Assembly (NCBI GenBank): GCA_019135865.1
Contig: JAGVVD010000019.1
Location: 124,001-188,000 of the forward strand
DNA length: 64,000 nucleotides
Direction: 5' to 3'
From: Elusimicrobiota bacterium
GTDB lineage: Bacteria; Elusimicrobiota; Elusimicrobia; Elusimicrobiales; UBA9959
In this document: in pieces, positions 16,389 through 34,516 of the stretch
Layout of the letters: every line of letters begins with the position of its first letter
Position numbering within the stretch: position 1 is the first letter of the stretch
Program-made: the position numbers and the translations under genes
The notes under the pieces: model-generated
What the model was told of the DNA's origin: nothing
What the model saw: the letters and a program-made list of their open reading frames with translations, nothing else
Database searches by the model: none

Positions 16389-16414
16389 CCGTTCCCGCGA
16401 ATAGAGGCGAAAAG

Positions 16415-16444
16415 GTCCCCGGCCCGGCGCCGGGGACTTTTTTT
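16415..16444 (+). terminator. Rho-independent terminator after trxA
   Basis: GTCCCCGGC - CCGGC - GCCGGGGAC followed by seven T. Confidence 0.9.
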
Positions 16445-16553
16445 GCCGCCTGAAGGGGGGAGGGGGCCTGGGTCCTTCGACCCTTGCGGTCCGGGCTGCC
16501 AGGGGCCAGACTATTATTGTTACGGTATTCTATTAAAGGCGCGGAGAATATCT

Positions 16554-17990
16554 ATGAAGAACAAACTCGCGGTTCTCGCTTTCCTGGCCTGCGCGGTGTC
16601 GGCCGGACTGCTCCTCTTCCCGGACGGCCGGCCCGGGGACGTCCCGGGCGACTTGCGCGACGCCCCCTCGGATTTCGGTTATTTTGACCGCGCCGATATC
16701 GAGGATATGGACGTGCCCGTCCCGGCCGCGGCCCAGGCGGAACCGGTGCGTTCCGGCTATCAGCCGGTAGCTATTTACGGCGACAATACTCTCGACGATT
16801 ACTACAAAGTGGACAAGTCGCTGCAGGAACTGGCCGATTCCGTGGTGGCTCTCATGGACAAGAGCGCGATCGCTTACGACGAGGCCAGCGGCACGTACAA
16901 GCCGCTCAAGCTTTCCACCGTCGACAGGAGGATGGGTCTGAGCAGCGGCGCCGAGTTTTCCGGCCAGAAAACCCTCTCTTTCTGTTCCGGGGCGCTGGTT
17001 TCCAGGGACCTGGTGCTGACCGCCGGCCACTGCATCAACAACGACCCCTCTCACGCCCACTATTTCAACAAGGTCTACGTGGTCTTCGGCTGGCGGCAGA
17101 CGGGGCGGGGGGAGTACGACCAGACTTTCTCACCCGACCAGGTCTACGAAGTGGAGAGGCTCCTGGCGCACAAGCTCGACGGCTCCATCGGGAACATGGA
17201 CACGTACCGGGATTACGCGCTGATCTCGCTTAAACGGCCGGTCCCGGGCAGGTCGCCGCTGACCATCGAGAGATCGCACGGCGAGGGCCTGAGAGAGGGC
17301 GCCTATGTCTTCGCCTCCGGTTATCCCATGGGCATGAGCGTCAAGGTCACCGACCCGGGCGACGCCACGATCAGGGAGATAGGCCGCAACGGGTACGCCA
17401 CCGACCTCGACGCGTTCGGCGGCTCGTCGGGCGGTCCGGTGTTCGATTCCGTCAGCAGGCGCATCTGCGGAGTGGTGATAACCGCCAACGCCAGGCAGTT
17501 CAAGTACACCGTCCGCAGGGAATTCTCCCTGCGCTACCGCGAGGACGCCGACCCTTCCGCGACGCTGAAGCTGGTGCGGGAGGAGGGGGGAAAGGTGCTG
17601 GTCGTGCCGCAGGGCGACCTGGAGACCGTGACGAACTCGCTGCGGAGCGTCGGCTGCGGGATAACCGCCGAGAGGGGCGGAGGGATGATCGCCTTCCCGC
17701 TCGGCTATTCGTTCTACAACAACCAGGAAAGTCTGCTGAACGAACTGATCTCGCTGACCGGCGCCGAAGGCGACGTTTACGGCGAGCCGGTACAGCTTCC
17801 CGCCTACGAGGGGATAGGCACCGGCGTGCAGAAGATCTCGGCCGAGCTGGAAGTTTTCACCCCTTTCACCGCCGAGGAGAACCGCATGTGCGAGCGGATC
17901 CGTTCCAGGATGCGCAACGGCATGACGATAGACCCGGCGTTCATGCAGCTCTACAAGGACGCCAAGTGCGACAGCCGCCGCATGATCTGA
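16554..17990 (+). CDS. Secreted trypsin-like serine protease (S1 family)
   Basis: A 478-residue exported protein. The N-terminus is a signal peptide (KNKLAVLAFLACAVSAGLLL). The catalytic triad is visible: His in LTAGHCIN, Asp in YRDYALISL, and Ser in FGGSSGGPVF. The first Cys of FCSGALVS probably pairs with that of AGHC. About 160 residues follow the catalytic domain and have no known fold. Near the N-terminus, residues 33-41 read DLRDAPSDF, a motif found again in the exported protein at 62142. The start ATG has GCGGAG upstream and a TATTCT -10 box. Confidence 0.88.
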   Translation: MKNKLAVLAFLACAVSAGLLLFPDGRPGDVPGDLRDAPSDFGYFDRADIEDMDVPVPAAAQAEPVRSGYQPVAIYGDNTLDDYYKVDKSLQELADSVVALMDKSAIAYDEASGTYKPLKLSTVDRRMGLSSGAEFSGQKTLSFCSGALVSRDLVLTAGHCINNDPSHAHYFNKVYVVFGWRQTGRGEYDQTFSPDQVYEVERLLAHKLDGSIGNMDTYRDYALISLKRPVPGRSPLTIERSHGEGLREGAYVFASGYPMGMSVKVTDPGDATIREIGRNGYATDLDAFGGSSGGPVFDSVSRRICGVVITANARQFKYTVRREFSLRYREDADPSATLKLVREEGGKVLVVPQGDLETVTNSLRSVGCGITAERGGGMIAFPLGYSFYNNQESLLNELISLTGAEGDVYGEPVQLPAYEGIGTGVQKISAELEVFTPFTAEENRMCERIRSRMRNGMTIDPAFMQLYKDAKCDSRRMI

Positions 17991-18035
17991 CGCGCGCGCG
18001 GCCCGGGCGGGCGGCGCGCCGCGGGGAAAATTTGC

Positions 18036-18041
18036 CATAAT
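18036..18041 (+). promoter_or_regulatory. -10 box, leaderless start of membrane protein
   Basis: CATAAT lies exactly six bases before the ATG at 18048; no SD is present. Confidence 0.5.
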
Positions 18042-18047
18042 TCCCCC

Positions 18048-18578
18048 ATGAGCGTATCGTCCCATCTTACCCCGGACCCCGAAAGGCGGCTCTGGGTGAT
18101 ATACTCCCGGGTGCAGGACCTGCTGGCCTCCACTGAAAGGAAACTCTGGCTTTTCACTTTCCTGGCCGCGGCGCAGGCCGCGCTGGCCAGGTTCGCCTCG
18201 CCCGGCGGTCTCGCCGCGTACCTTTCAATAGTCCTCTCGGCCCTGGCGCTGCCGCTCGGCGCGCTGGCGCTGTCGCCGTTCCTGGACAACCCACGCCCCT
18301 CGATCAGCCAGAAGCCCGGCCCCGGAAAGAAAGGGACGGCTTACTCCCTGCTGAGGGAGCGCGACCTGGCCGGATTTTCCCAGGCGGACCTTACCATAAC
18401 GCTGGACAAATACCTGGGCGGGGGGGTGACGGCCATCCCCTATTACGACGATATAATAGACCAGATCGTGCTCGGCGCGAGGGCCGTCGTGAGGAAGGAG
18501 TTCCAGCTCAAGGTGCTCTGTTCCCTGGTGTTCGCCGGCCAGCTGCTGTTCCTGGCGGCGCTGCTGTCCCGCCCCTGA
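18048..18578 (+). CDS. Three-helix membrane protein of unknown function
   Basis: A 176-residue protein. Two hydrophobic helices (about 32-53 and 55-80) follow a short N-terminus, then a soluble stretch (about 85-145), then a C-terminal helix (about 155-174, VLCSLVFAGQLLFLAALL) preceded by a basic segment (VVRKEFQLK). The order 2 TM, soluble, 1 TM recalls PycTM/DUF5706 effectors of Pycsar defence, but no nucleotide cyclase lies nearby, so this is only a topological similarity. It stands alone, convergent with hrpB. Confidence 0.6.
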   Translation: MSVSSHLTPDPERRLWVIYSRVQDLLASTERKLWLFTFLAAAQAALARFASPGGLAAYLSIVLSALALPLGALALSPFLDNPRPSISQKPGPGKKGTAYSLLRERDLAGFSQADLTITLDKYLGGGVTAIPYYDDIIDQIVLGARAVVRKEFQLKVLCSLVFAGQLLFLAALLSRP

Positions 18579-18587
18579 CCCCGTCCT

Positions 18588-21065
18588 TCATAACCACTTG
18601 TGCTTCGGGTAGCGGCGCGCCAGCGCCGGCCTGAGTTCGGGGTAGCTTTCCGACCAGAAACTTTTAAGGTCCTTGGTGACCTGAACGGGGCGCATGGACG
18701 GCGCCAGGATGTGTACGACCAGCGGCACCCGGCCGGCGGCTATGCGCGGCGTCTCCTTCAACCCGAAAAGGTCCTGTATCTTCGCCTCCAGGAAAGGCTC
18801 GCCGCCCGCGGGATAGCGTATCCGCGCTTTCCTGCCCGACGGCGTCTCCAGCCTTTGCGGCGCGTGCCGGTCCAGCAGGCGGCATTTCTCCCAGCCGTAC
18901 CAGTCCTTCAGCGCCGGCAGGACCTCCCGCTCGCGCGCCTCGGCCACGCTGCGCGCGCCGTGGCAGATATCGGCTATTATGAGGGCCTTGTCCTCCGCCG
19001 ACAGCGGCTCTATCCCGAGGTCGGGGCAGTTGCGGTGCAGGAAGTCCGCGCGCGCCAGCCAGTCCTCCGTTTCCTCGTCCCAGCGGCGGAATTTCTGGCG
19101 GCCGCTGACGAACTCTTCCGCTATAAGGTCCGACGAAGCCCCGCCTTTCTTCGCCGAGGTTATCTCCCTGCGTACGACTATGTCCCGGTAAAGCGTAAGG
19201 CGCTCCGTGACGGGCGTCAGCATGTCTTTGTCCAGCGCGGGCCGGTCTTCTTCCTTTATGTCGCGCGGGAACGACTCGCGGAGCCATTCCTCTTTCACCG
19301 GCGCGGCGAAGGAAAGGGTGATGTCGGCGCCGCCCTTGCCCGCGCTTTCAACTACGGAGCCGGCGCAGATCAGGCGCGCCCCGGCGGCGGCGCTGGCCGG
19401 GTCCAGCCTGGCGCTGCGGCCTCCGGGAAGGCGGTAGCGGCCCTGCTCCGCGGAGAACAGCGCGGCCACGCGGTCGGGGAAGGCGAGCAGGAAGCAGCGC
19501 GCGGCGTTCTCCAGGGCCTTGGCCCCGCCGGGAGCGGCGCCGCCGGCCAGCCGCTCCGCCATCCGCCAGGCCTCGCGGGCCGGGGCCTGTTTCAGCCCCG
19601 CTTTCTCGCAGGCGAACCAGTCGAAACCGCCTGCCGCGCAGGCGGAGAGCTCTTTTACCGCGGCGGCCAGATCGGAGCCCGCTTCGGCCCGCCGGCCTCC
19701 GCCCCGCCTGTCGGCCCAGATCCCGCGTCCCTGCGCCGCCGCCGCTATGACGGCGCATTCCCTGGCGCAGCCCAGGCGCTTCGCCTCCGCCATCATGCGC
19801 GAGTAGCGGGGATGCAGCGGATAGGAGGACATCTCGCGGCCCGCCGCCGTCAGCGCGCCCTTCCCGTCGCAGGCGCCCAGGTCCCGCAGCAGGCTCTCCG
19901 CCCGCTCCGCCGCTTCCGGCGACGGCGGGTCCAGCCAGCGCAGGTCTCCGAAGCCGCGGTAGCCGCAGGCCTTGAGCGTCAGCAGCGCCTCGCTGATGTC
20001 CAGACGCAGCATCTCCGGCGAGAGCGCCGGAGCGAGGCCCTGGTCCTCCCGTTCGGTCCAGAGGCGGGCGCAGAAGCCGGGGCCGGTGCGCCCGGCCCGT
20101 CCGGCGCGCTGAGCGGCGGAGGCGGCGGAAATGCGTTCGGTGAAGAGCGTGTTGATGCCGCGGGCGCCGTCGAACCTGGCCGTTTTCGCCAGACCGCTGT
20201 CTATCACGGCCGCGACGCCCTCTATCGTGACCGAGGTCTCGGCGATATTGGTGGAGATTATTATCTTGCGGCCGCCGGAGGGGGAGACCGCGGCGTCCTG
20301 CTCGGCCGGCTTCATCTCGCCGTGCAGCGGCATGACGCGGAAACCGGCGAGGGACGGAAGTTTGGCTATTTCCGCGGCGGTCCTGTTTATCTCGTAGGCC
20401 CCCGGCATGAAGACCAGCGCGTGGCCTTCCTTTATTTTGGGCAGCAGCGCGGCGCAGGCGCGCGCCGCGGCCTCCCAGGGGGGCAGGGCGGCCTCGGCGG
20501 CGCCGCAATGGACGGTCTTCACCGGGTAGAGCGCGCCTTCGGCCTTTATGACGGAGCAGGGGTCCAGGTAAGCCGCCAGCGCGGCCTCGTCCATGGTCGC
20601 CGACATGACGGCCACCAGCAGGTCCGGCCTCGGCCCTTTCTGCAGGGCCAGGCAGGCCGCCAGTGTGATATCGCCGTGCAGGTGCCGCTCGTGGAATTCA
20701 TCCAGCACTACCGCGGAGTATTTTTTCAGCAGCGGGTCGGAGACCAGTTCGCGCAGCAGGATACCTTCGGTCTCGAATATTATGCGCGTGGAAGGGCCGG
20801 TCCTGTCGTCGAAACGCACCCTGTAGCCGACCTCGCCGCCGGTCCGTCCGCCGCGCTCGGCCGCGACCCGGTCGGCCAGCATACGGGCCGCGAGGCGGCG
20901 CGGCTGAAGGACGGCTATGCGGCCTTTCACGGCCCCGCGGTCCAGGAGCAGCTGGGGGACCTTGGTGGACTTGCCCGAGCCCGGGGGGGACGAGACGATA
21001 AGCCGCGCGCCGGGCCGTGCCGCGCGCGCGATCTCGTCAGCTTTAGCTAGAACTGGCAGTTGCAT
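18588..21065 (-). CDS. hrpB: ATP-dependent helicase HrpB
   Basis: An 825-residue DEAH-type helicase. Visible motifs: Walker A SSPPGSGKSTKVPQLLL, LDEFHERHLHGD (DEFH instead of DEAH), the SAT motif in MSATMDEAAL, IISTNIAETSVTIEG and QRAGRAGRTGPG. The helicase-associated domain and the HrpB C-terminal domain follow. Its cellular role is poorly known. The gene is convergent with the upstream membrane protein and starts at ATG 21065. A long open frame on the opposite strand is a codon-bias shadow. Confidence 0.93.
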   Translation of the reverse strand: MQLPVLAKADEIARAARPGARLIVSSPPGSGKSTKVPQLLLDRGAVKGRIAVLQPRRLAARMLADRVAAERGGRTGGEVGYRVRFDDRTGPSTRIIFETEGILLRELVSDPLLKKYSAVVLDEFHERHLHGDITLAACLALQKGPRPDLLVAVMSATMDEAALAAYLDPCSVIKAEGALYPVKTVHCGAAEAALPPWEAAARACAALLPKIKEGHALVFMPGAYEINRTAAEIAKLPSLAGFRVMPLHGEMKPAEQDAAVSPSGGRKIIISTNIAETSVTIEGVAAVIDSGLAKTARFDGARGINTLFTERISAASAAQRAGRAGRTGPGFCARLWTEREDQGLAPALSPEMLRLDISEALLTLKACGYRGFGDLRWLDPPSPEAAERAESLLRDLGACDGKGALTAAGREMSSYPLHPRYSRMMAEAKRLGCARECAVIAAAAQGRGIWADRRGGGRRAEAGSDLAAAVKELSACAAGGFDWFACEKAGLKQAPAREAWRMAERLAGGAAPGGAKALENAARCFLLAFPDRVAALFSAEQGRYRLPGGRSARLDPASAAAGARLICAGSVVESAGKGGADITLSFAAPVKEEWLRESFPRDIKEEDRPALDKDMLTPVTERLTLYRDIVVRREITSAKKGGASSDLIAEEFVSGRQKFRRWDEETEDWLARADFLHRNCPDLGIEPLSAEDKALIIADICHGARSVAEAREREVLPALKDWYGWEKCRLLDRHAPQRLETPSGRKARIRYPAGGEPFLEAKIQDLFGLKETPRIAAGRVPLVVHILAPSMRPVQVTKDLKSFWSESYPELRPALARRYPKHKWL

Positions 21066-21228
21066 CCTTATCCCACATTATCCTAAAAACGGGCCGTGCC
21101 GGGACAGTGCCGCGGCCGTTCCCCGACGCGAAGGACTACGCCCGGGACGCGTTTTTCGGAGGCCGGGAGCCTCCGAAAAGGTATAATATCCGTGATGGTA
21201 TCGCTTCCCGCGGAAAACTTTTTACGCG

Positions 21229-22740
21229 ATGACCGCTGACGTGAAATACCCTATGTTCATCTCCGGCGGCATGGGCGTGCGCGTTTCCTGGTGGCTGCTG
21301 GCCAGGATAGTCTCCATCATGGGAGGCCTGGGCGTGGTCTCCGGCACCGGCCTGGAACTGGTCTATCCCCGCCTGCTCCAGGACGGCGACCCCGGCGGCA
21401 ATGTCCGCGCCGCTTTCAACGAGCTGGCCTCCCGCCAGCCCTCCCTGGCCGGCGGGCTCAAGGATATCTACGACAGGTATTACATCGAGGGCGGCAAGCC
21501 GCAGTCCCGGCCCTATAAGCCGGTGCCGATGTGGCGTCTCTCCCGCGTCGAAGGGTACGGGACCCCGCCCGACACTTTCTGGGAGCCTTCCAGGGACCTG
21601 CAGCTGATGTCGCTGGCCTCCAATTTCGCCGAGGTCTGGCTCGCCAAGCGCGATCATAACGGCCCCATCGGCATAAATTTTCTCCGCAAAGTCGAGCGTC
21701 CGCTGCCCTGGGCGCTCTACGGGGCGATGCTGGCCGGCATCGACTATGTGCTGGTCGGCGCCGGCAATCCCTACGAGTTCCCCGGCATGATACGCTCGCT
21801 GTCGCGCCATGAGCCGGCCTCGCTGGGCTTCAAGGTCTTCGGCGCCACTTCCGGCTCCGGCAATTTTTCCGTGCTGGCCAGGCCCGCCTCGCTGGGCATA
21901 AAAGGCGTTCCGAACCTGCCGCAGCCGAAATTCCTGGCCATCGTCTCTTCCTACGGCCTGGCCAAAGCCCTTTACGATAATCCCGAGACGCGGCCGCACG
22001 GCTTCGTCGTCGAGGGTCCCGAGGCCGGCGGGCACAGCGCCCCGCCCGGCAAGATGAAGTTCGACGCTTCCGGCAAGCAGGTCCTGGTCTATACCGACGA
22101 GGACCGGGCCGACGTGCCTGCGATCGCTTCCATCGGCCTGCCTTTCTGGCTGGCCGGCACCTACGGCACCCCGCGGAAGCTCGGGGAGGCCCTGGCCGCC
22201 GGAGCCGCGGGCGTGCAGTTCGGCACGCTGGCCGCGCTTTCGGGCCAGTCTGGCTTCGAGCCTTCCCTCAGGGCCAGGACCCTTAAGATGCTGGCGGCCG
22301 GCGAACTGAAGGTCGTCAATTCGCACGTGTCCCCCACCGGCTTCCCTTTCAAGGTGGCCCAGGTCCCCGGCACCATCTCCGACCCCGCGGTCTATTCGAA
22401 GAGGCGCAGGGTCTGCGATATCGGCCTGCTGGCCGCCGCCTACCTCGCGCCGAACGGCGGAGTGGAGTTCCGCTGCCCCGCGGAGCCCGTCGAATCCTTC
22501 AAGGCCAAAGGCGGGCGCCCGCAGAACACCGAGGGCAAGGTCTGCCTCTGCAACGCGCTGTTGGCCGCGGCCGGGCAGCCGCAGCTCCATCCGGACGGCT
22601 ATCCCGAGCCGGGCATAGTCACGCTCGGCGAGGACCTGACCCCGGTGAAGGACATGCTGGCCTCGCTGCCGCCCGGCCAGGAAGGCTATTCCATCGGCAA
22701 GGCCATTCAGTACCTCAAGTCCGGACTCAAAGAAGCCTGA
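21229..22740 (+). CDS. Nitronate monooxygenase-like flavoprotein
   Basis: A 503-residue protein of the NMO / 2-nitropropane dioxygenase superfamily: a flavin-binding TIM barrel with PMFISGGMGVRVSWWLLARI at the N-terminus, a conserved phosphate-binding region (FVVEGPEAGGHSAPP) and GTYGTPRKLGEALAAGAAGVQ. It is longer than classic NMOs (about 320-360), with extra sequence before and after the core, and the C-terminus has several cysteines (EGKVCLCNALL). Substrate unknown. A consensus TATAAT lies at 21183; the start has no SD and the first in-frame ATG is used. Confidence 0.8.
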   Translation: MTADVKYPMFISGGMGVRVSWWLLARIVSIMGGLGVVSGTGLELVYPRLLQDGDPGGNVRAAFNELASRQPSLAGGLKDIYDRYYIEGGKPQSRPYKPVPMWRLSRVEGYGTPPDTFWEPSRDLQLMSLASNFAEVWLAKRDHNGPIGINFLRKVERPLPWALYGAMLAGIDYVLVGAGNPYEFPGMIRSLSRHEPASLGFKVFGATSGSGNFSVLARPASLGIKGVPNLPQPKFLAIVSSYGLAKALYDNPETRPHGFVVEGPEAGGHSAPPGKMKFDASGKQVLVYTDEDRADVPAIASIGLPFWLAGTYGTPRKLGEALAAGAAGVQFGTLAALSGQSGFEPSLRARTLKMLAAGELKVVNSHVSPTGFPFKVAQVPGTISDPAVYSKRRRVCDIGLLAAAYLAPNGGVEFRCPAEPVESFKAKGGRPQNTEGKVCLCNALLAAAGQPQLHPDGYPEPGIVTLGEDLTPVKDMLASLPPGQEGYSIGKAIQYLKSGLKEA

Positions 22741-22766
22741 ATTTTTCCGTAAGCGGCGAATGAAAA

Positions 22767-22786
22767 ACCCCGGGACGGCCCGGGGT
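22767..22786. terminator. Bidirectional terminator between convergent genes
   Basis: ACCCCGGG-ACGG-CCCGGGGT with an A-run before it and a T-rich stretch after it. It serves the NMO-like gene and ahcY. Confidence 0.85.
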
Positions 22787-22810
22787 CTTTCATTGGGGGA
22801 GAGCCCGTTC

Positions 22811-24262
22811 TCAATACCGGTAATGGTCCGGCTTGTAGGGGCCTTCGGGTTTCACGCCGATATAGTCGGCCTGTTCCTTCGTCAGTTTCGTGAGCTTCAC
22901 CCCTATCTTCTCCAGGTGCAGCCGCGCCACTTCCTCGTCGAGGTGCTTGGGCAGGCGGTAGACGCCGATCTCGTGTTTCTTCGTCCAGAGCTCCAGCTGC
23001 GCCAGCGTCTGGTTCGAGAAGGAATTGCTCATGACGAACGAGGGGTGGCCCTTGGCGCAGCCCAGGTTCACCAGCCGGCCTTCGGCCAGCAGGTAGATGG
23101 CCCTGCCGCCGGGCAGGTCGTAGCGGTCCACCTGCGGCTTTATGTTCACCCGCTTCACGCCCTTCGCCTTGTTGAGGGCGTCCACCTGTATCTCATTGTC
23201 GAAATGGCCGATATTGCAGACGATGGCCTGGTTCTTCATCTTCAGCATGTGCTCCAGGCGTATGATGTCCCGGTTGCCGGTGGTGGTGACGTAGAGGTCG
23301 GCCTCGCCGAGCGTGTCCTCGACGGTCCTGACCTCGAAGCCCTCCATCGCCGCTTGCAGCGCGCAGATGGGGTCTATCTCGGTGACGATGACCCGCGCGC
23401 CGAAGCCGCGCAGCGATCTGGCCGAACCCTTGCCCACGTCGCCGTAGCCGCAGACCACGGCCACTTTCCCGGCTATCATCACGTCGGTGGCGCGCTTGAT
23501 GCCGTCGGCCAGCGATTCGCGGCAGCCGTAGAGGTTATCGAACTTGGATTTGGTGACGGAATCGTTGACGTTGATGGCGGGGACCAGCAGTTCGCCCGCC
23601 TCGTGCATCTGGTAGAGGCGGTGCACGCCGGTGGTGGTCTCCTCGGAGACGCCCTTCCATTCCTTCGCGACGCCGTGCCAGCGCCGCGGGCTCCTTTTAA
23701 GAATGGTCTTCAGGCAGTTGTTGAGCTCCAGCTCGTCCTCGCCCGAGGTCCTGCCTTCGAGCGCTTTCGCGTCGTCCTCGGCCTTGAAGCCGCGGTGTAT
23801 CATCATCGTGGCGTCGCCGCCGTCGTCCACTATGAGCTGCGGCCCCTTGCCGCCGCCGAAGTCCAGCGCGCGCTCGGTGCACCACCAGTACTCGGCCAGC
23901 GTCTCGCCCTTCCAGGCGAACACGGGGATGCCCGCCCTGGCTATCGCCGCGGCGGCCTGGTCCTGGGTCGAGAAGATGTTGCACGAGCACCAGCGCACCT
24001 CGGCGCCCAGCGCCGCGAGCGTCTCTATCAGCACGGCGGTCTGGGTGGTCATGTGCAGCGAGCCCATCACGCGCGCGCCTTTGAGCGGCTTCTTCGCGGC
24101 GTATCGCTCCCGTATGGCCATCAGGCCGGGCATTTCCTTCTCGGCTATCTCGATCTCGCGGCGGCCCTGGGCGGCCAGCGAAATATCCCTGATCCTGAAA
24201 TCTTCGTTCATCTTGAGCGCTCCGTTGTTCTTCGCGGGGTTCGGCATGGTCCTCATCTTCAT
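22811..24262 (-). CDS. ahcY: Adenosylhomocysteinase
   Basis: A 483-residue NAD-dependent enzyme that splits S-adenosylhomocysteine to adenosine and homocysteine, keeping methylation going. Typical stretches: [36 protein letters not shown], the NAD-binding [20 protein letters not shown], and the C-terminal PDHYRY. The start at 24262 has AGGAG six to nine bases upstream. A TATAAT box sits at 24309-24314, giving a leader of about 40 bases, too short for a SAH riboswitch. It could clear SAH made by the ArsM methyltransferase encoded at 48496. Confidence 0.97.
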
Positions 24263-24308
24263 CTCCTGTCGCGGCGGTCCTGCCCCCCGCGTTCTCTTTG
24301 GAAAGGAG

Positions 24309-24314
24309 ATTATA
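24309..24314 (-). promoter_or_regulatory. -10 box of ahcY
   Basis: TATAAT on the minus strand; no convincing -35 box. Confidence 0.55.
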
Positions 24315-24393
24315 CTTTTTATGACAACGCGGGGGGAACTTCCGCGTGGCCGCGGGTTTTGATATCCTATCCGCTGACCGAAGGAAGAGAGCC

Positions 24394-25140
24394 ATGAGGA
24401 AGACGTCCTTTTTCGCGCTTCTGCTCACCGCGCTGCTGGCGGCCGCGGCGCCGCTGCGGGCGGAGGACTGGGTAATACCCAGGACCACCTATTACATCTC
24501 CGCCGGGGCGCAGGAGTTCCCGGATTTCCCGCCGCCGCCCGAGGACGGTTCGCCCGCGGACCTGGCCGACCTGCAGGGGGTGCGGGACTGGCAGGTAAAG
24601 CGCAGTACCGCCCAATGCGCCGCCGCCGCCGCTGCCGCCCAGGCCTCCTTCACGGAATTCTTCGCCGACATAAGTCCTTTCCCTTCGCCTCTGCCGGGGA
24701 AGGCGAAAGAGATACTCGACAGGGTCAAGAAGGAGACCGACGGAGCCGCGGCCGGCGTGAAGGACATGTTCGGGAGGCCGAGGCCTTTCCTCAGGGCCCC
24801 GGACCTGGACCCCTGCCTCGGCCGCATAGGAGGCAAGGCCTATCCCAGCGGCCATGCCGCCATCTCGCGGGTCCTGGCCCTGATGCTCGCCGACCTGGTC
24901 CCGGCCAGGCGCCGGGAATTCCTGTCCAGGGCCGATGCCGCCGCGCTGGACAGGGTCATAGGAGGCGTGCATCATCCCGCCGATATAGAGGCGGGCAAAC
25001 TGCTCGGCGACAGGCTTTACGCCGCCTATTCCGACAGTCCGGCTTTCAAAGCGGATATGTCGGTCCTGCGCGGCCTGCTGAAAAAAAACGCCCGCCTTTT
25101 ACCCGAAGGAGCGGTCCGCCGTTCCGGCGGCGCCCGTTAG
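24394..25140 (+). CDS. Exported PAP2-family (class A) acid phosphatase
   Basis: A 248-residue protein with a signal peptide ([20 protein letters not shown], cut after RAE). The three PAP2 motifs are present: K-x6-RP as [15 protein letters not shown], and the last motif as [15 protein letters not shown]. Class A nonspecific acid phosphatases act in the periplasm on phosphomonoesters. The start is the ATG at 24394 with GGAAGAGA upstream; the longer frame begins in the promoter. Confidence 0.9.
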
Positions 25141-25219
25141 CCCGGAGGGGAAAAACCCGGCGAGGGATCCCCGGCCGGCTTTTCAGGATCGGGATCCGCT
25201 GAAGGGCCGTCCCCATATC

Positions 25220-25228
25220 TGCTAAAAT
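25220..25228 (+). promoter_or_regulatory. Extended -10 promoter of the TerB-like gene
   Basis: TGCTAAAAT, an extended -10 element, lies about 28 bases before the ATG at 25256, which has its own GGAGGA SD. Confidence 0.6.
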
Positions 25229-25255
25229 ATCCCCGATAGGAACGGAGGAACGACC

Positions 25256-25705
25256 ATGAAAAAGACTTCCAAGACCTGCGGCTGCGCCTGCGGCTGTTCC
25301 CAGAGCACGCTGAACTCGCCCGCCGACGCCATGATGGCGCTGTGCGTCATGGCCATGGCCAGCGACGGCAAACTGGAAAAGCACGAACTCTCCCGCATAG
25401 ACCAGATGATAGCGATGAGTCCGCTTTTCGACGGCGTCATGAACGCCCGCGACTACGCCGCCTGCATCTCGGAGACCATCGCCGAGAAGGGCCGCGCTTC
25501 GGTCATAGAGGAGGCCGCCGGGCTGCTGCCCGCCCGCCTGGCCGAGACCGCCTACGCCTGGGCCGCCAGCATGGTCATGGCCGACGGGAAGGCCGTCTCG
25601 CCCGAGCATAAGTTCCTCTCCTCGATACGCAAGGCGCTGGGAGTGCACGGGGTGCTGGCCGGCAAGATCAACGCGGTGGTCGCCATCCTAAACCGCGCGA
25701 AATAA
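25256..25705 (+). CDS. TerB-like protein with N-terminal Cys cluster
   Basis: A 149-residue protein. A short head carries a CGCACGC cluster that could bind a metal. The rest is helical and matches the tellurite-resistance TerB-like fold, with two repeats holding the MAMASDGKLEKHELSRID and MVMADGKAVSPEHKFL acidic loops. TerB-like domains bind divalent metals; the exact role is unknown. It is followed 12 bases later by the SUI1-type factor in the same frame, and the two are likely one operon. Confidence 0.75.
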   Translation: MKKTSKTCGCACGCSQSTLNSPADAMMALCVMAMASDGKLEKHELSRIDQMIAMSPLFDGVMNARDYAACISETIAEKGRASVIEEAAGLLPARLAETAYAWAASMVMADGKAVSPEHKFLSSIRKALGVHGVLAGKINAVVAILNRAK

Positions 25706-25717
25706 GCGGGGGGACCT

Positions 25718-26074
25718 CTGGCTTCCGGCAGGATAGTCTATTCCACGGGACCGGACGGCGTTTCGATATGTCCGAAATGCCGCCGGTCCCCTTGTTCCTG
25801 CCCGGAGGGGCTGGCGGGGCCGGCGAAGCCGCGCACCCAGACCGAACCGGTGCGGGTCTCCTACAGGCGTACGGGCAAGGGCGGGGGGATGACGCTGGTC
25901 GAGAAACTGCCGATGCATCCCGCCGGAAAAGAAGAACTGCTCTCTAAATTCAAGAAACGCCTCGGCGCCGGCGGCACCGTAAAGAACGGCGTCCTCGAAC
26001 TGCAGGGCGACCGCAGGGATTTCGTCAGGGCCGAACTCGAGTCGGCCGGCTACAAGGTCCGCCTCATAAGTTGA
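25718..26074 (+). CDS. yciH: SUI1/YciH-family translation factor, probable CTG start
   Basis: A 118-residue eIF1-like protein. The C-terminal SUI1 core is clear (GTVKNGVLELQGDRRDFVRA, then ELESAGYKVRLIS). The conserved N-terminus (GRIVYSTGPDGVSICPKCRR) is also encoded, but the frame has no ATG, GTG or TTG between the previous stop at 25703 and that segment. The only plausible initiator is CTG at 25718, four bases after a G6 SD. A GTG at 25850 would delete the conserved N-terminus. YciH-type proteins affect start-codon fidelity, so a weak start codon could give autoregulation, as with AUU in infC. Confidence 0.8.
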   Translation: MASGRIVYSTGPDGVSICPKCRRSPCSCPEGLAGPAKPRTQTEPVRVSYRRTGKGGGMTLVEKLPMHPAGKEELLSKFKKRLGAGGTVKNGVLELQGDRRDFVRAELESAGYKVRLIS

Positions 26075-26104
26075 AGTCCCTCCCGGACGACCGCCCCTCT
26101 AAAA

Positions 26105-26143
26105 TGCTAAAATAGTACCGCGCGGCGCCTTTCCGGGCGCCGC
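26105..26143 (+). promoter_or_regulatory. Extended -10 promoter and leader hairpin of the ABC-F gene
   Basis: TGCTAAAAT (26105-26113) is an extended -10 element. Transcription starting near 26120 would make a leader of about 120 bases that begins with GCGGCGCC-TTTCCG-GGCGCCGC (26122-26143). ABC-F genes are often controlled by leader attenuation, but I see no clear terminator or leader peptide here. Confidence 0.5.
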
Positions 26144-26241
26144 CGGGAGTCCTCTGACCTTCGGTCCCGCGGCCGTAAAAATCACATCGGAGAGACTTTC
26201 GCCCGGACGGCCCGGACCGTCCATGAGCGGCGCTCTATTTT

Positions 26242-28053
<1,812 letters not shown>

Positions 28054-28100
28054 CGCCGGCAACGGAAGCCGCGTCCGCCCCGAAAGGGGACAAGGAACGA

Positions 28101-29936
28101 ATGCAACAGGAAAAGACAGCGCGCAGGGCTGACCTGCGTAACATAGCCATCATTGCCCACGTGGACCACGGCAAGACCACGCTGGTCGACGCCATGCTCA
28201 AGCAGACCGGCGCCTTCACCGACAAGAGCGGCGAAGAGGCGATCTGTATAATGGACTCCAACGATCTCGAGCGCGAGAGGGGCATAACGATACTTTCCAA
28301 GAACACCTCGGTGCGCCGCGGCGATACCACGATACATATCGTCGACACCCCCGGCCACGCGGACTTCGGCAGCGAGGTCGAGCGCGTCCTGCGTATGGTG
28401 GACGGCGTGCTGCTGCTGGCGGACGCCCTCGACGGGCCCATGCCGCAGACCCGTTTCGTCCTCAAGAAGTCGCTGGCCCTGGGCCTGCGGCCGATAGTGG
28501 TCATAAACAAAGTGGACCGCCCCAACTGCGACCCGCACGCCGCGCTGGACAAGGTCTTCGCCCTCTTCATGGAACTGGGCGCCACCGACGAGCAGCTGGA
28601 CTTTCCGGTCGTGTACGCGGTCGGCCGCGACGGCTGGGCCTCGCCGGACTACCATAAGCCGGCCCAAGACCTTTCCTATCTCTTCGACACCATCATGAAG
28701 CACGTGCCCGGGCCGCTGGATCTGGACGCGGAACCGCTGCGCGCGCTCATCACGATGCTGGATTACAGTTCCTATACGGGCCGCATCGGCGTGGGGCGCA
28801 TCGTCCAAGGCGTGATAACTTCCGGCCAGGCCGTGGCGATGGGCTCCCCGTCGTCGCAGCCCGTGACGCGCAAGGTCATGCAGCTGATGGGTTACAAGGG
28901 GCTGGACCGCGTGAACATAAAGAGCGCCCGCTCCGGCGATATCGTGGCCATAGCCGGACTGGAGGGCGTGGAGGTCGGGGACACCGTCTCCTCCGCGGAA
29001 TCGCCCGGCGTGCTGCCGGGACTCGAGATAGAGCAGCCGACGCTCTCGATGGAATTCTTCGCCAATGACGGGCCTTTCTCCGGGCGCGAGGGCAAGTTCG
29101 TGACCATCACGCAGATACGAGACCGCCTCTACCGCGAACAGGAGACGAACGTCGGCCTGAAGGTGGAGGAGATCCCCGGCCAGGCCGGCTTCAAGGTCTC
29201 GGGCCGCGGAGAACTGCACCTCTCCATCCTGATCGAGACCATGCGCCGCGAGGGCTACGAACTCTGCGTTTCCAAGATGGCCGTCATCACCAGGGAGGAG
29301 AACGGCGTGGTCCTGGAGCCGGTCGAATACCTCATACTCGACGCTCCCGCGGAATTCCAGGGCGCCGTCATGACCGGTCTCGGCGCGCGGGGGGCGCAGA
29401 TGAAGAACATGGCCACCGGCGACGACGGCCGGGTGCGCTTCGAATATATCATCTCCTCGCGGGCCCTGATCGGCTTCAAGTCCGAGTTCATGACCTTCAC
29501 CAGGGGTTCGGGGCTGATGCATCACAGCTTCCACGGCTTCCTGCCGGAGGGCAATTTCAGCCGGCCCCCGCGCAACGGCGTCTTCATCGCCAAGGAATCG
29601 GGCCAGTCGGCCGGCTACGCGCTCAACGGCCTGCAGGACCACGGCATCATGTTCGTAGGTCCCGGCGAGGATATCTACGCCGGGCAGGTGGTGGGCGAGC
29701 ATTGCCGCGGCAACGACCTGGTCACCAACCCGTGCAAGGAGAAGAAGCAGACCAATATGCGCTCCTCCACCTCGGACGCTTCCATCATACTCACGCCGCC
29801 GCTCAGGATGAGCCTGGAGCAGGCCATCGAATACGTGGAGGAGGACGAGTTCGTGGAGGTCACGCCGAAAAGCCTGCGCCTGCGCAAGAAGATACTCGAC
29901 CATTCCATGCGCAAAAGGAGCGAGAAGGACGAGTGA
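28101..29936 (+). CDS. typA: Ribosome-associated GTPase TypA/BipA
   Basis: A 611-residue translational GTPase. G1 is AHVDHGKTT, switch I includes [18 protein letters not shown]3 is DTPGHADFG, and G4 is NKVDRPNCD. Domains II, III, V and the BipA-specific C-terminal domain follow ([36 protein letters not shown]). It acts in 50S assembly and stress, especially in the cold. The start is the ATG at 28101 with AAGGAA upstream; a GTG at 28050 overlapping the ABC-F stop is possible but would add a non-conserved leader. Confidence 0.95.
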
Positions 29937-30493
29937 GGCCGACCCTAGCCGCCCTCTGCTTCGCCCTCGCGGCGGCCGCTCCGCGGCCCGCCGCCGATCC
30001 GGCCGACGGTTACTCCGGGCTCTGGTCCGGGGAGGCCCGGCTGGATTCGGGCCAGCTCTACGAGGTGTCCATATCCATCCGTAAGGCCGCGCACGGCTTC
30101 TCCGCTTCCTATAACGCCTCGCCGAAGGGCGGCGGCCGCGCGGGGGGACGCATGAGCGGGACCGCGGAGGCGGCGAAAAAGCCGGAAGGCACCTACAGGG
30201 TAAGGCTGAGGCTGGACGCTTTCAGGAATTTCAACATGCCGGCCACGGCCTCCGTGGACGAGGGGGGGAAGCTGACGATAGAGTCGGCGCTCTTCAGCGG
30301 CTTCGGCAACCTCAACGCCGGGAAGGACGAGATCCATTTCATGTACGATTCCCGCATGGGCTCGGGCCGCGGAGTGCTGACCAGGAAGGTGCCCAAAAAG
30401 CCCGGTGTGGCCAGGAAGAAAAAAGAGCCCTCCTCTCCTCCCGTTCCCGCGGGCCCGTCGGCTCCCGGGATCTCCCCGGTCAGGCCCGACTGA
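29933..30493 (+). CDS. Exported protein of unknown function
   Basis: A 186-residue protein starting with GTG that overlaps the typA stop (GTGA), with GAAGGA upstream. The N-terminus is a signal peptide ([20 protein letters not shown]). The middle (YSGLWSGEARLDSGQLYEVS ... KLTIESALFSGFGNLNA) reads like a small beta-barrel or lipocalin-like fold. The C-terminal 35 residues are Lys/Pro-rich. I do not recognise a family. The 3' end overlaps the convergent yihY gene by 14 bases. Confidence 0.65.
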   Translation: MRPTLAALCFALAAAAPRPAADPADGYSGLWSGEARLDSGQLYEVSISIRKAAHGFSASYNASPKGGGRAGGRMSGTAEAAKKPEGTYRVRLRLDAFRNFNMPATASVDEGGKLTIESALFSGFGNLNAGKDEIHFMYDSRMGSGRGVLTRKVPKKPGVARKKKEPSSPPVPAGPSAPGISPVRPD

Positions 30494-31328
30494 CCCCGCC
30501 CTCCCGCCCTGCGGGCGGCGCGGCCGGGCACATGCAGGCGCCGTATATCACGACGCAGGCCGAGATATAGACCCACAGCAGCAGGGCCATTATGCCGCCC
30601 AGCACGCCGTAGACGCTGCGACCGGCGGCATAGCCGGTATACAGGGAGAAAAGCCATTCGGTGGCGCGCAGTATGGCCGTGGCGGCCAGCGCCGGGCCTA
30701 ATACGTCCCGGAAGTTCTTTTTGCCGGAAGGCGCGAACTTGTAGAAAAGCGCCAGCCCCGCGAATATCACGGCCCAGGGCAGGAAGACGAAGAAAAGGCC
30801 GTACATGCCGGGGGGGACCATGCCCAAATCGAGGTCCCAGGCCTTCGCCAGGTTCGCCGCGGCCCCTGCCGCCAGGCCGGCCAGCACCAGCGCCGATATC
30901 AGGAAGAAAAGCAGCAGGCCTTTGAGATTGTCCCTGAGCCAGCCGGTCCTGCCGTCGCCGCAGGCCAGGTTGACGGCCTCGGCCATGGCGGAGAAGGCCC
31001 TGGAAGACATCCAGGACAGCAGTACCAGCGATACGGTCCCCACCCCGGCCCTGGCTTCCGCCAGGCCTGTTATGGTGTCGGCCACCCAGCTCCGCAGCTG
31101 CGGGCCGAGCGAGGCGAAGGCCTCGGCGTAGCCTATCACCTTCGCCACGGCCAGGTCGTAATCCAGGAACATGGACGCCCCCGCCACGATCAGCACTATG
31201 GCGGGGAAGAGGGAGAAGAAAGCGTGGAAGGCCACCGCGGCCCCGCGCTGGGAGCCGTCTATCCTCATGAAAATACCCAGGGCGCGGCGGGCGGCGCGCC
31301 AGGCTTTAAGCGCCGTATCATGCTTCAT
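30480..31328 (-). CDS. YihY/BrkB-family inner-membrane protein
   Basis: A 282-residue membrane protein with about six helices. The family pattern is present: GAAVAFHAFFSLFPAIVLIV near the N-terminus, the middle segment LLSWMSSRAFSAMAEAVNLA, and the late VYGVLGGIMALLLWVYISAC. It was once named ribonuclease BN, but that activity belongs to another gene; the real function is unknown. The C-terminus overlaps the convergent gene by 14 bases. Confidence 0.88.
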   Translation of the reverse strand: MKHDTALKAWRAARRALGIFMRIDGSQRGAAVAFHAFFSLFPAIVLIVAGASMFLDYDLAVAKVIGYAEAFASLGPQLRSWVADTITGLAEARAGVGTVSLVLLSWMSSRAFSAMAEAVNLACGDGRTGWLRDNLKGLLLFFLISALVLAGLAAGAAANLAKAWDLDLGMVPPGMYGLFFVFLPWAVIFAGLALFYKFAPSGKKNFRDVLGPALAATAILRATEWLFSLYTGYAAGRSVYGVLGGIMALLLWVYISACVVIYGACMCPAAPPAGREGGVSRA

Positions 31329-31375
31329 ACCGGATAGATATTATCAAAAGAGAGCCCCGCGTTCCTCAATTTTGG

Positions 31376-31381
31376 TATATT
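31376..31381 (+). promoter_or_regulatory. -10 box, leaderless start of deaminase
   Basis: TATATT lies exactly six bases before the ATG at 31388; no SD. Confidence 0.55.
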
Positions 31382-31387
31382 TTACTC

Positions 31388-31831
31388 ATGAATGACCATC
31401 TCAGGTTCATGCGCGAAGCGATAAAAGAGGCCCGTAAGGGGCTGGCGGAAGGGGGTATCCCCATCGGTTCCGTTCTCGTCAAGGGGGGGCGTATAATAGG
31501 AAGGGGGCATAACAGGCGGGTACAGAAGAAGTCGGCCATACTGCACGCGGAGATGGACTGCCTGGAGAACGCCGGCCGCCTCAAGGCCGCCGATTACCGC
31601 AAATGCACCATCTATTCCACCCTGTCGCCCTGCCATATGTGCACCGGGGCGATACTGCTCTACGGGATACCCAGGGTGGTCATAGGGGAGAACCGTACCT
31701 TCAAGGGGCCGGAGGCTTATTCCCGCCGCCGGCTGAAGCTGATGAACCTGGACCTGGCCGAATGCCGGGAGCTCATGGAGGGGTTCATAAAGGCCCGTCC
31801 GGAGCTCTGGTACGAAGATATAGGGAAATAA
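31388..31831 (+). CDS. Nucleoside/cytosine deaminase, CMP/dCMP superfamily
   Basis: A 147-residue zinc deaminase. Zinc ligands and catalytic Glu are in LHAEMDCL and the PCHMC motif of STLSPCHMCTGAILLYGI. The substrate loop and C-terminal WYED resemble yeast cytosine deaminase or guanine deaminase more than TadA, which would normally have PCxxCxxA and longer tRNA-binding helices. Substrate is uncertain (cytosine, guanine or related). It precedes the RRM gene but has its own promoter. Confidence 0.8.
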   Translation: MNDHLRFMREAIKEARKGLAEGGIPIGSVLVKGGRIIGRGHNRRVQKKSAILHAEMDCLENAGRLKAADYRKCTIYSTLSPCHMCTGAILLYGIPRVVIGENRTFKGPEAYSRRRLKLMNLDLAECRELMEGFIKARPELWYEDIGK

Positions 31832-31857
31832 AACGCAACTTATGCCTTTTATTATGG

Positions 31858-31863
31858 TATAAT
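31858..31863 (+). promoter_or_regulatory. Consensus -10 box of the RRM gene
   Basis: TATAAT with start expected near 31870; no clear -35. Confidence 0.65.
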
Positions 31864-31869
31864 AAAAGC

Positions 31870-31974
31870 GTACCCAGCTCAGTCTATTGCGGTCCGACCC
31901 GGCAATACTGCGGTGTAGAAGATAGCAGAGAGTGAGTTTGCGGACAGAGAGAGTATTGTCAGGAGGATAGCACA
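31870..31974 (+). promoter_or_regulatory. Folded 5' leader of the RRM gene with competing stems
   Basis: The 105-base leader can form stem 1 (ATTGC 31886-31890 with GCAAT 31902-31906, extended by two G-C pairs) or stem 2 (CAATACT 31903-31909 with AGTATTG 31952-31958). They share 31903-31906, so they exclude each other. Stem 2 ends three bases before the AGGAGG SD. This arrangement would suit temperature or protein-controlled translation. Confidence 0.45.
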
Positions 31975-32307
31975 ATGAAAAAGATATACGTAGGGGGACT
32001 CCCCTTCTCGACCACCGAGGACGAACTGAACGGTCTGTTCGCCAGCTACGGCAAGGTCTCCAGCGCCAAGATCATCACGGACAAGTTCAGCGGGCAGTCC
32101 CGCGGCTTCGGCTTCGTGGAGATGGAGGACGACGGTGAGGCCACCGGCGCCATGGAAAAGCTCAACGGCTCCGATTTCGGCGGCCGCAAGCTGACCGTGA
32201 ACGAGGCTCGCCCCATGGAGCCCCGCTCCGGCGGTAAGGGCGGTTTCGGCGGCGGACGCGGCGGCGATCGCGGCGGTCGCGGCGGCGGCGGCTTCTCCAA
32301 GTGGTAA
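31975..32307 (+). CDS. RNA-binding RRM protein with Gly/Arg-rich tail
   Basis: A 110-residue protein. Residues 2-80 are one RRM: RNP2 is KIYVGGLPF and RNP1 is SRGFGFVEM. The tail (GGKGGFGGGRGGDRGGRGGG) is an RGG-type region. It resembles cyanobacterial Rbp and other bacterial RRM proteins that are cold-induced and act as RNA chaperones. A long folded leader and a strong SD (AGGAGG) support post-transcriptional control. It is a single-gene unit with its own terminator. Confidence 0.93.
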   Translation: MKKIYVGGLPFSTTEDELNGLFASYGKVSSAKIITDKFSGQSRGFGFVEMEDDGEATGAMEKLNGSDFGGRKLTVNEARPMEPRSGGKGGFGGGRGGDRGGRGGGGFSKW

Positions 32308-32340
32308 GCTGACCCCATAGACTGAAACTGAAAAGTTTCG

Positions 32341-32374
32341 ACCCCCGTTCGCTTAACGCGGACGGGGGTTTTTA
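32341..32374 (+). terminator. Rho-independent terminator after the RRM gene
   Basis: ACCCCCGT ... ACGGGGGT with an inner CGC/GCG and six T afterwards. Confidence 0.9.
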
Positions 32375-32481
32375 TTTGCCCAAAGGACCTATCCGGGCCT
32401 GGGCCTTGCTCCGCTTGCCTTGTCAAGCCTTACGGGTTAAGCTATAGACGGGAAGCGAATCCCGGTAGAAAGGCGGAATTT

Positions 32482-33762
32482 ATGAAAACCCTTATGACCA
32501 TAGCGGCCACCCTCCTCCTGGGGACCTGCGCCTACGCCCAGGGCGATTTCGGCCTGGAAGGCCTGCGCTCGGCCGATATACTCCTGACCGAGGTCCCTGA
32601 AATAAGCGCGGAAGCCGCTATTCCCGCCGCGGAAAAGTCCGCGGGCCTCGAGCGCGCGGCCGCTAAAGAGTGGACCGTCATGGTCTTCCTCAACGCCAAG
32701 AACAATCTCGAGAGCTACGGCATGAAGGACATGAACGAGATGGAGACCGTCGGCTCCACCTCCAAGGTCAATGTCGTGGTCCAGATGGGCCGCATGGCCG
32801 GTTTCGACGATTCGGACGGCGACTGGCGCGGCGTGCGCCGCTACTACGTCACCCGCGACCTCAATCCCTGGCGCATAACCTCCCCGGTGGTGCAGGACCT
32901 GGGGCGGGTGAACATGGGCGACTCACGCGAACTGACCAAATTCATACAGTGGACCAAGGCCAATTATCCCGCGAAGAAGTACCTGCTGGTGCTCTGGAAC
33001 CACGGCTCCGGCTGGGACAAGGGCAACCCGGTGCGCGACGAGAACAAGGGCATCTCCTTCGACGACGAGACCGGCAATAATATCGACACCCCGCAGCTGC
33101 GCCGCGTGCTGGCGGCCGCCGGCGGCGTGGACGTGCTGGCCTCCGACGCCTGCCTGATGCAGATGGCCGAGGTCGCCTACGAGGTGAAGGACGGCGCGAA
33201 GTTCATAGTCGGCTCGGAGGAGACCGAGCCCGGCGCCGGCTACGCCTATTACAAGATCCTCTTCCCTCTTTCCATCAACCCGACGATGAGCGCCGAGTCG
33301 CTGGGCCGGGTCATAGTCGCCGCCTACTGGGACTCCAATCCCATCGGCTTCAGCGTGGCCACCCATTCGATCCTGGACGGCTCCAAGGTCGCCGAGCTCG
33401 GCCGGAAGATGGACGAGTTCGCCCGCGCGGCCATGGCCTCGGGCGAGAAGGCGAAGATAAAGGAAGCCCGCGACGCGGCCCAGAAGTACGCCGTGGACGA
33501 CAACAAGGACCTGCACCATTTCGCCTCGCTGGTCGCGGAGAAGACCGGCAACGCCGGGCTGCGTGCCAAGGCCCGCGCCCTGGCGGCCCACATCTCGGGG
33601 GAACTGGTCCTGCTCAACATGACCAGCATACTGCCCCGCAGCAACTCCAACGGCATCGCGGCCTATATCCCCGGCTCCTGGTATGACAGGGATTTCAACG
33701 AGCTGAGGCTGGCCCGCGACACGCAGTGGGACGAATTCCTGCAGTGGGTGGCCGCCCGCTAG
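32482..33762 (+). CDS. Secreted clostripain-like cysteine peptidase (C11)
   Basis: A 426-residue protein with a signal peptide (KTLMTIAATLLLGTCAYAQ). The C11 fold is clear: WTVMVFLNAKNNLESYGMKD at the domain start, catalytic His in VLWNHGSGWD, and catalytic Cys in LASDACLMQMAEVAYEV. Clostripains cut after arginine or lysine and often mature by self-cleavage. The protein ends soon after the peptidase domain with no sorting tail. SD is AAAGGCGG. It stands alone between two terminators. Confidence 0.92.
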   Translation: MKTLMTIAATLLLGTCAYAQGDFGLEGLRSADILLTEVPEISAEAAIPAAEKSAGLERAAAKEWTVMVFLNAKNNLESYGMKDMNEMETVGSTSKVNVVVQMGRMAGFDDSDGDWRGVRRYYVTRDLNPWRITSPVVQDLGRVNMGDSRELTKFIQWTKANYPAKKYLLVLWNHGSGWDKGNPVRDENKGISFDDETGNNIDTPQLRRVLAAAGGVDVLASDACLMQMAEVAYEVKDGAKFIVGSEETEPGAGYAYYKILFPLSINPTMSAESLGRVIVAAYWDSNPIGFSVATHSILDGSKVAELGRKMDEFARAAMASGEKAKIKEARDAAQKYAVDDNKDLHHFASLVAEKTGNAGLRAKARALAAHISGELVLLNMTSILPRSNSNGIAAYIPGSWYDRDFNELRLARDTQWDEFLQWVAAR

Positions 33763-33787
33763 TCTTAGCCTCCCGCCCGCCCGGAAA

Positions 33788-33810
33788 CCCCGCCCTCCCG
33801 GCGGGGTTTT
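33788..33810 (+). terminator. Rho-independent terminator after the C11 peptidase
   Basis: CCCCGCC-CTCCC-GGCGGGG followed by TTTTC and five T. Confidence 0.85.
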
Positions 33811-33826
33811 CTTTTTGGCGGGGCCC

Positions 33827-33869
33827 TTGACAACGATGTTATACGGATGTATAATTATATAAGCGTATA
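33827..33869 (+). promoter_or_regulatory. Promoter and likely operator of the efflux operon
   Basis: TTGACA (33827-33832), 17 bases, TATAAT (33850-33855): a near-perfect sigma-70 promoter. An inverted repeat TATACG (33840-33845) / CGTATA (33864-33869) covers the -10 and start site, a natural place for binding by the TetR-type product of the first gene. Confidence 0.75.
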
Positions 33870-33886
33870 GTTATTTCGGAGGACAT

Positions 33887-34516
33887 ATGGCCAGACCGGC
33901 CTCGGGAACGGATATAAAGCTTAAAGCCGCCGGCAAGGAACTGCTGCGGGAGAAAGGCGTCAACGGCCTCGTCGTGCGCGAGGTCTGCCGGCGGGCGGGC
34001 GTCAATACCGGCATGTTCCACTATTACTTCGGCTCCCGTGAGGAGTTCCTGCGCGCCGTGATGAAGGAAATGTACGCCGATTTTATGGTAGATTTCAAGG
34101 CGGGGGTACTGGCGGGGGGGACTCCGCGGGACAAGCTCAAGAACGCCCTGATACAGGTCGGCCGTTTCGTCCGCAGCATGCGGCGCACGGCACCGATGGT
34201 GCTGGCCGACCTGGCCCACGGCAACAGGGAGGCTTTCGCCTTCGTGACCGGCAATTTCACGGAGCACGCCGTGCAGATAGCCGGGCTCGCGGCGGTCAAC
34301 CGTCCCAGGAGCGCCGTCAAGGACCGGTCCATCCCCTTCCTGGTCGGCGCGCTGCTGCCGGTAATGATCTTCCCCGGCATAATAGGGGGCATAATGGAGC
34401 GCAACGGCGTGAAGAGCCTGGGGGGGGAGAAACTGGACGACCTCATGGACGAATTCCTTTCCGACAAGGGCATAGAGGCGCGGGCGGAGATAGCCCTGAG
34501 GGGAATAGGATTATGA
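33887..34516 (+). CDS. TetR-family repressor of the efflux operon
   Basis: A 209-residue regulator. The N-terminal HTH is typical (GLVVREVCRRAGVNTGMFHY, then YFGSREEFLRAVM). The ligand-binding half is helical and unassigned. It is the first gene of an eight-gene unit and overlaps the next start (ATGA), so it likely controls the operon, as CecR controls the E. coli YbhGFSR pump. SD is GGAGGA. The inducer is unknown. Confidence 0.9.
   Translation: MARPASGTDIKLKAAGKELLREKGVNGLVVREVCRRAGVNTGMFHYYFGSREEFLRAVMKEMYADFMVDFKAGVLAGGTPRDKLKNALIQVGRFVRSMRRTAPMVLADLAHGNREAFAFVTGNFTEHAVQIAGLAAVNRPRSAVKDRSIPFLVGALLPVMIFPGIIGGIMERNGVKSLGGEKLDDLMDEFLSDKGIEARAEIALRGIGL

What the first reader, a model, noticed from the sequence alone, without database searches (positions are those of the whole stretch)
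25708..25860. SUI1/YciH initiation factor apparently begins at CTG
The conserved N-terminus is encoded, but no ATG, GTG or TTG exists in frame upstream of it; a CTG follows a G6 SD at four bases. YciH/eIF1 proteins act in start-codon selection, so starting from a near-cognate codon would allow feedback control, as known for infC (AUU) and for eukaryotic eIF1 (poor context).
Basis: partly seen in the sequence, partly recalled or inferred. Interest (0 to 1): 0.6.

Follow-up and report, generated by a model that had tools for sequence, protein, structure and literature searches.

The report
SUI1 gene starting at CTG codon
In one genus of Elusimicrobiota bacteria, the gene for a small protein related to the start-codon-checking factor eIF1/YciH seems itself to begin at the rare start codon CTG, which may keep its production low or tie it to the gene in front; whether the protein controls itself this way is untested.

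Summary
The only SUI1-domain gene of this Elusimicrobiota genome has no ATG, GTG or TTG between the in-frame stop of the preceding terB-like gene and its conserved N-terminus. The one usable codon is CTG 25718-25720, behind a G-rich Shine-Dalgarno-like run. It is not a sequencing error. All four held species of the genus have CTG, CTG, CTG or GTG at the same codon, the spacer to terB differs by 1-2 nt (so no fusion or readthrough), and the 40 codons before GTG 25850 are under purifying selection (dN/dS 0.08-0.22); a start at GTG 25850 would lose them. Over the phylum, 106 of 108 SUI1 genes were examined: ATG 83, GTG 19, TTG 1, CTG only 3, all in this genus.

What coincides with it is a rearrangement: only in this genus does terB lie 10-12 nt upstream, and the ancestral ATG, one codon upstream, is gone. 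My preferred reading is a terB-coupled gene that tolerates, or uses, a weak CUG start. Separately, infC in the same family keeps TTG (26 of 26 examined).

The parts
25256..25705 (+). terB-like gene (Pfam TerB PF05099), directly upstream of SUI1 only in this genus among the loci compared; its TAA stop (25703-25705) is 12 nt before the CTG and in the same frame in this species
25708..25713 (+). G6 run, Shine-Dalgarno-like; duplex with a recalled 16S tail -9.5 kcal/mol (6.5% of random 22-mers of the window are as strong)
25718..25720 (+). CTG, inferred start codon; CTG/CTG/GTG in the three other species of the genus
25718..26074 (+). SUI1 (YciH/eIF1-like) coding sequence, 118 aa from CTG
25730..25849 (+). 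N-terminal 40 codons with CxxC-x4-CxC, under purifying selection (dN/dS 0.08-0.22); would be lost if translation began at GTG 25850
25850..25852 (+). GTG, first standard start codon in frame; a conserved internal valine, no Shine-Dalgarno pairing (-0.1 kcal/mol)
26242..28053 (+). ABC-type ATPase gene downstream, ABC-F-like (neighbour; the name ABC-F is my reading of its two ABC_tran and two ABC_tran_Xtn stretches)

Best explanation
The SUI1 gene of this genus is translated from CUG (25718). SHOWN by comparison: the position of the start, its keeping as [C/G]TG in all four held species, the absence of the ATG that relatives have one codon upstream, and a different gene order in which the terB-like gene ends 10-12 nt before the start. 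INFERRED: a rearrangement placed terB in front of SUI1 and removed the old leader and ATG; the neighbouring NUG one codon downstream took over, served by the G-rich Shine-Dalgarno-like run and by ribosomes finishing terB (translational coupling). The CUG is read by the normal initiator tRNA as fMet, and the result is a low, terB-linked supply of the SUI1 protein.
For: No ATG/GTG/TTG in frame before the conserved N-terminus in G000, G001 and G002. [C/G]TG aligned in 4 of 4 genus members, with spacers to the terB stop of 12, 11, 10 and 10 nt, i.e. three different phases, so neither fusion nor readthrough. The contigs come from separately named assemblies. dN/dS 0.08-0.22 in the 40 codons before GTG 25850, all six pairs. 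Other SUI1 genes of the phylum: ATG 83, GTG 19, TTG 1 of 106 examined. terB immediately upstream in the three genus loci among the 38 loci and in the window, and in none of the other 35; in L039, L040, L041 and L046 terB lies downstream of SUI1. Shine-Dalgarno-like duplex -7.4 to -11.0 kcal/mol in the four species. E. coli yciH also starts at the end of the preceding gene: its annotated ATG overlaps the pyrF stop.
Against: No protein or ribosome data. In E. coli, CUG complexes are less stable than AUG/GUG/UUG ones and CUG is not initiated efficiently (passages of PMC11497404); a Caulobacter dnaA CUG (species recalled) gave a toeprint but was not used in vivo (passages of PMC8443254). The Shine-Dalgarno-like pairing is only moderately better than random in this GC-rich window (6.5%, 2.9%, 9.9%, 16.8% of random 22-mers as strong). 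The predicted fold buries the start in G000. G002 has an in-frame GTG five codons downstream, though badly spaced. Coupling and the rearrangement route are inference; operon structure was not tested.
Confidence: 0.62

Rival explanations
1. Feedback control: the CUG start is kept because the SUI1 protein destabilises initiation on near-cognate codons and so limits its own synthesis, as IF3 does through AUU of infC and eIF1 through a poor AUG context.
For: The product is a SUI1/eIF1 relative. CTG is the most parsimonious ancestral state in the genus, with one change to GTG in G003. The infC precedent is described in PMC9410913 (passage). In the same family infC keeps TTG in 26 of 26 examined genomes.
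Against: 0 of 102 other SUI1 genes examined in the phylum lack a standard start; G003 uses ordinary GTG; E. coli yciH uses ATG; that YciH acts on start-codon fidelity is recalled from Lomakin 2006 (only its title was seen; not held); no expression data; a rearrangement explains the change.
Confidence: 0.2
2. Translation really starts at GTG 25850, giving a 74-aa bare SUI1 domain.
For: The Pfam SUI1 match begins near there (residue 46 of the stop-to-stop frame); it is the first standard start codon.
Against: Purifying selection upstream (dN/dS 0.08-0.22) and the cysteine motif kept in the genus and in most of its family; no Shine-Dalgarno pairing; relatives start upstream.
Confidence: 0.05
3. 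Sequencing or assembly error hides a normal start.
For: All genus records seen are metagenome assemblies (titles).
Against: Same codon CTG in three separately assembled species and GTG in a fourth.
Confidence: 0.01
4. Another near-cognate codon (for example ATA 25733) or a dual start is used.
For: ATA follows the conserved Arg codon in G000 and G001.
Against: Not kept in G002 and G003 (GTG, GTA); the best pairing upstream of ATA 25733 is weaker and leaves no gap (-5.1 kcal/mol, spacing 0).
Confidence: 0.06

Closest known systems
infC (IF3) with AUU start, E. coli
   Same: A gene for an initiation factor that begins at a codon outside AUG/GUG/UUG
   Different: The AUU start of infC is tied to self-regulation (PMC9410913 passage); the CTG here is confined to one genus and feedback is untested
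eIF1 autoregulation by poor AUG context (Ivanov 2010; only the reference entry was seen)
   Same: The product is a SUI1-fold relative of eIF1
   Different: There the codon is AUG in poor context (recalled); here it is CUG with a Shine-Dalgarno-like run
E. coli yciH
   Same: SUI1 domain, best solved-structure match 1d1r, E 3.5e-13; start lies at the end of the preceding gene (pyrF)
   Different: Starts at ATG; no cysteine motif in the N-terminal part read; NCBIfam YciH cut-offs not reached here

Membership tests
SUI1 domain family (PF01253) | Match above Pfam gathering score | tested here: met
   43.9 bits against 25.5
YciH equivalog (TIGR01158; also NF005297) | Match above NCBIfam cut-off | tested here: not met
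   67.5 against 111.65 bits; 67.1 against 145 bits. I call it a SUI1/YciH-like protein, not YciH proper
Genes with a near-cognate start outside AUG/GUG/UUG | No standard start in frame upstream of a conserved N-terminus, kept in relatives | tested here: met
   3 of 4 genus members CTG only, the fourth GTG at the same codon
Genes with a near-cognate start outside AUG/GUG/UUG | Initiation at that codon in the cell | not testable with these tools
   needs N-terminal proteomics or start-site ribosome profiling
infC-type self-regulated initiation factor genes | Near-cognate start kept over distant relatives | tested here: not met
   0 of 102 SUI1 genes examined outside the genus lack a standard start
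infC-type self-regulated initiation factor genes | Product represses its own near-cognate start | not testable with these tools
   needs reporter assay
Translationally coupled gene pair | Short intergenic spacer, gene order kept in the genus | tested here: met
   12, 11, 10 and 10 nt in 4 of 4 species
Translationally coupled gene pair | Downstream output depends on upstream translation | not testable with these tools
   needs reporter assay

The most novel reading that the evidence does not exclude
A bacterial eIF1-like protein controls its own synthesis by discriminating against its own CUG start codon, a bacterial counterpart of eIF1 self-regulation, with a natural GTG variant in a sister species as built-in control.
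Probability: 0.2. Interest if true: 0.75.

Novelty: new member of a known kind. Interest (0 to 1): 0.42.

Why it matters
A near-cognate start kept across three species is unusual for any bacterial gene, and here it sits on a relative of the factor that checks start codons in eukaryotes. Standard gene finders that allow only ATG/GTG/TTG would truncate or miss this protein. The genus offers a ready comparison (CTG in three species, GTG in one, ATG one codon upstream in relatives) for testing whether SUI1-type proteins in bacteria act on start-codon choice.

Tried and rejected
Fusion or readthrough from terB: rejected, because the frame relation to terB differs between species. Sequencing error: rejected. 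Start at GTG 25850: very unlikely. A conserved RNA fold at the start: four single folds look different and the start is buried to varying degrees; nothing concluded. Rfam: only two tRNAs in the window, nothing near the start; no match at infC of G000. Two other ORFs flagged in the control, ahcY (22811-24424) and an ABC-2 permease (37276-39330), were dropped because the homology upstream of their ATG is leader or out-of-frame similarity. The control set of 33 ORFs was picked greedily from 302 stop-to-stop ORFs and still holds some antisense shadows. In one search ten rows came out as 'NONE'; seven of them (L137, L145, L146, L152, L157, L166, L183) show ATG and were counted as ATG by eye; the single TTG (L150) is uncertain. 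G095 and G165 (partial genes) were not examined. My note gives the spacer as 9-12 nt; recounting the sequences gives 10-12. Literature: searches (YciH with 'start codon', 'IF3', 'SUI1'/'translation initiation inhibitor') listed no paper whose title or abstract start reports a non-AUG start for yciH; only passages or listings were read, and many journals are not held. Searches were for background on non-AUG starts. Seen as passages: PMC9410913, PMC3130014, PMC3828320, PMC11497404, PMC8443254, PMC9845219, PMC6237735, PMC10783764, PMC4245954.

Full report
WHAT IS THERE. The frame 25706-26074 (+) encodes a SUI1-domain protein (Pfam PF01253, 43.9 bits against a cut-off of 25.5; best solved-structure match E. 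coli YciH 1d1r, E 3.5e-13). It is the only match for this protein in the genome. The frame opens directly behind the TAA of a terB-like gene (25256-25705), with four codons and then CTG at 25718-25720; the first ATG/GTG/TTG in frame is GTG 25850.

NOT AN ERROR, NOT A FUSION. All four held species of the genus were examined. The aligned codon is CTG in G000, G001 and G002 and GTG in G003. No in-frame ATG/GTG/TTG precedes the CTG in 4, 65 and 15 codons up to the stop in G000, G001 and G002. The spacer between the terB stop and the start is 12, 11, 10 and 10 nt, so the gene is in three different phases relative to terB, which rules out a shared readthrough or fusion product. Within the spacer a G-rich run and the TG of the start are kept while most neighbours vary.

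THE N-TERMINUS IS TRANSLATED. In the 40 codons from the conserved Arg to the codon before GTG 25850, dN/dS is 0.08-0.22 in all six species pairs, against 0.02-0.10 in the rest. The stretch carries CxxC-x4-CxC, present in most family members. Starting at GTG 25850 would discard it, and GTG 25850 has no Shine-Dalgarno pairing (-0.1 kcal/mol). The pairing upstream of CTG/CTG/CTG/GTG is -9.5, -11.0, -8.6 and -7.4 kcal/mol; 6.5%, 2.9%, 9.9% and 16.8% of random 22-mers of the window do as well, so by itself this is moderate evidence (anti-Shine-Dalgarno recalled). One caution: G002 has an in-frame GTG five codons after the CTG, with poor spacing.

HOW UNUSUAL. PF01253 matched 108 of 340 genomes of the phylum. 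I examined 106 of the 108 start regions: 30 loci and 76. Counts: ATG 83, GTG 19, TTG 1 (uncertain), CTG only 3 (seven ATG cases were settled by eye). The three CTG cases are all in this genus (3 of 4); outside it 0 of 102. In a 40-kb control around the gene (window 16001-56000 against G001 and G002, with G003 for 16001-36000), 30 of 33 selected conserved ORFs have a standard start no later than 25 codons after the point where homology begins. Of the other three, one is SUI1 and two are explained.

WHY IT MAY HAVE ARISEN. Most relatives of the same family start with ATG one codon further upstream (M-x-D-N-D-R against L-x-x-x-R). Among the 38 loci, terB lies directly upstream of SUI1 only in the three genus loci (and in the window). 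In L039, L040, L041 and L046 terB lies downstream of SUI1, and the gene before SUI1 is the PAP2 gene in L039, L041 and L046. So a rearrangement in the ancestor of the genus put terB in front and coincided with the loss of the ATG (inference). Three of four species have CTG; CTG as ancestral state with one change to GTG is the most parsimonious reading, but the species tree is not resolved: gene distances disagree.

HOW IT MAY WORK. In E. coli, CUG complexes are less stable than those at AUG, GUG and UUG, and CUG is not initiated efficiently (passages of PMC11497404). A CUG start therefore predicts low output unless ribosomes are delivered locally, which terB translation ending 10-12 nt upstream would do. 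E. coli yciH, too, begins at the end of the preceding gene: its ATG overlaps the pyrF stop. I rate coupled low-level translation as the most likely explanation, and feedback by the product at about 0.2. For feedback: the protein class, the persistence of CTG, and the precedent of infC (PMC9410913 passage). Against: its absence in all other SUI1 genes examined, the GTG in G003, and the rearrangement account. The claim that YciH acts on initiation fidelity is recalled from Lomakin et al. 2006, of which I saw only the title in reference lists (not held).

SIDE RESULT. infC was examined at 38 of 58 matched genomes: TTG at the conserved start in 26 of 26 of this family and ATG in 12 of 12 of the other family of the order.

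VERDICT. Observation confirmed; start codon CTG very likely (about 0.88, my estimate); regulation open. A rare near-cognate start fixed in most of one genus, on a suggestive gene.

Noticed in passing
L100 (G000:C6:5000-7200), L072, L088 and further loci: infC (IF3) has TTG at the conserved start in 26 of 26 examined genomes of this family, in many behind an AGGAGG-like run, but ATG in 12 of 12 of the neighbouring family.
   Followed up: partly
window 25769-25810; L032-L064: The SUI1 protein carries a short N-terminal CxxC-x4-CxC motif, possibly a zinc knuckle, common in the family and lost in some relatives such as L069 and L159.
   Followed up: no
L121 (G014) and L122 (G022): In two genomes of one genus a stretch is inserted between the cysteine motif and the SUI1 core (split matches).
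   Followed up: no
window 25256-25705 against L039, L040, L041, L046: The terB-like gene lies upstream of SUI1 in this genus and downstream of it in four relatives: a local gene-order swap.
   Followed up: partly
window 24263-24385 (-): Similarity between genus members continues upstream of the ahcY start into its leader; Rfam finds no known element there.
   Followed up: partly
phylum Elusimicrobiota: SUI1 genes are patchy: found in 108 of 340 genomes, and not found in any held genome of several genera of the same family.
   Followed up: no
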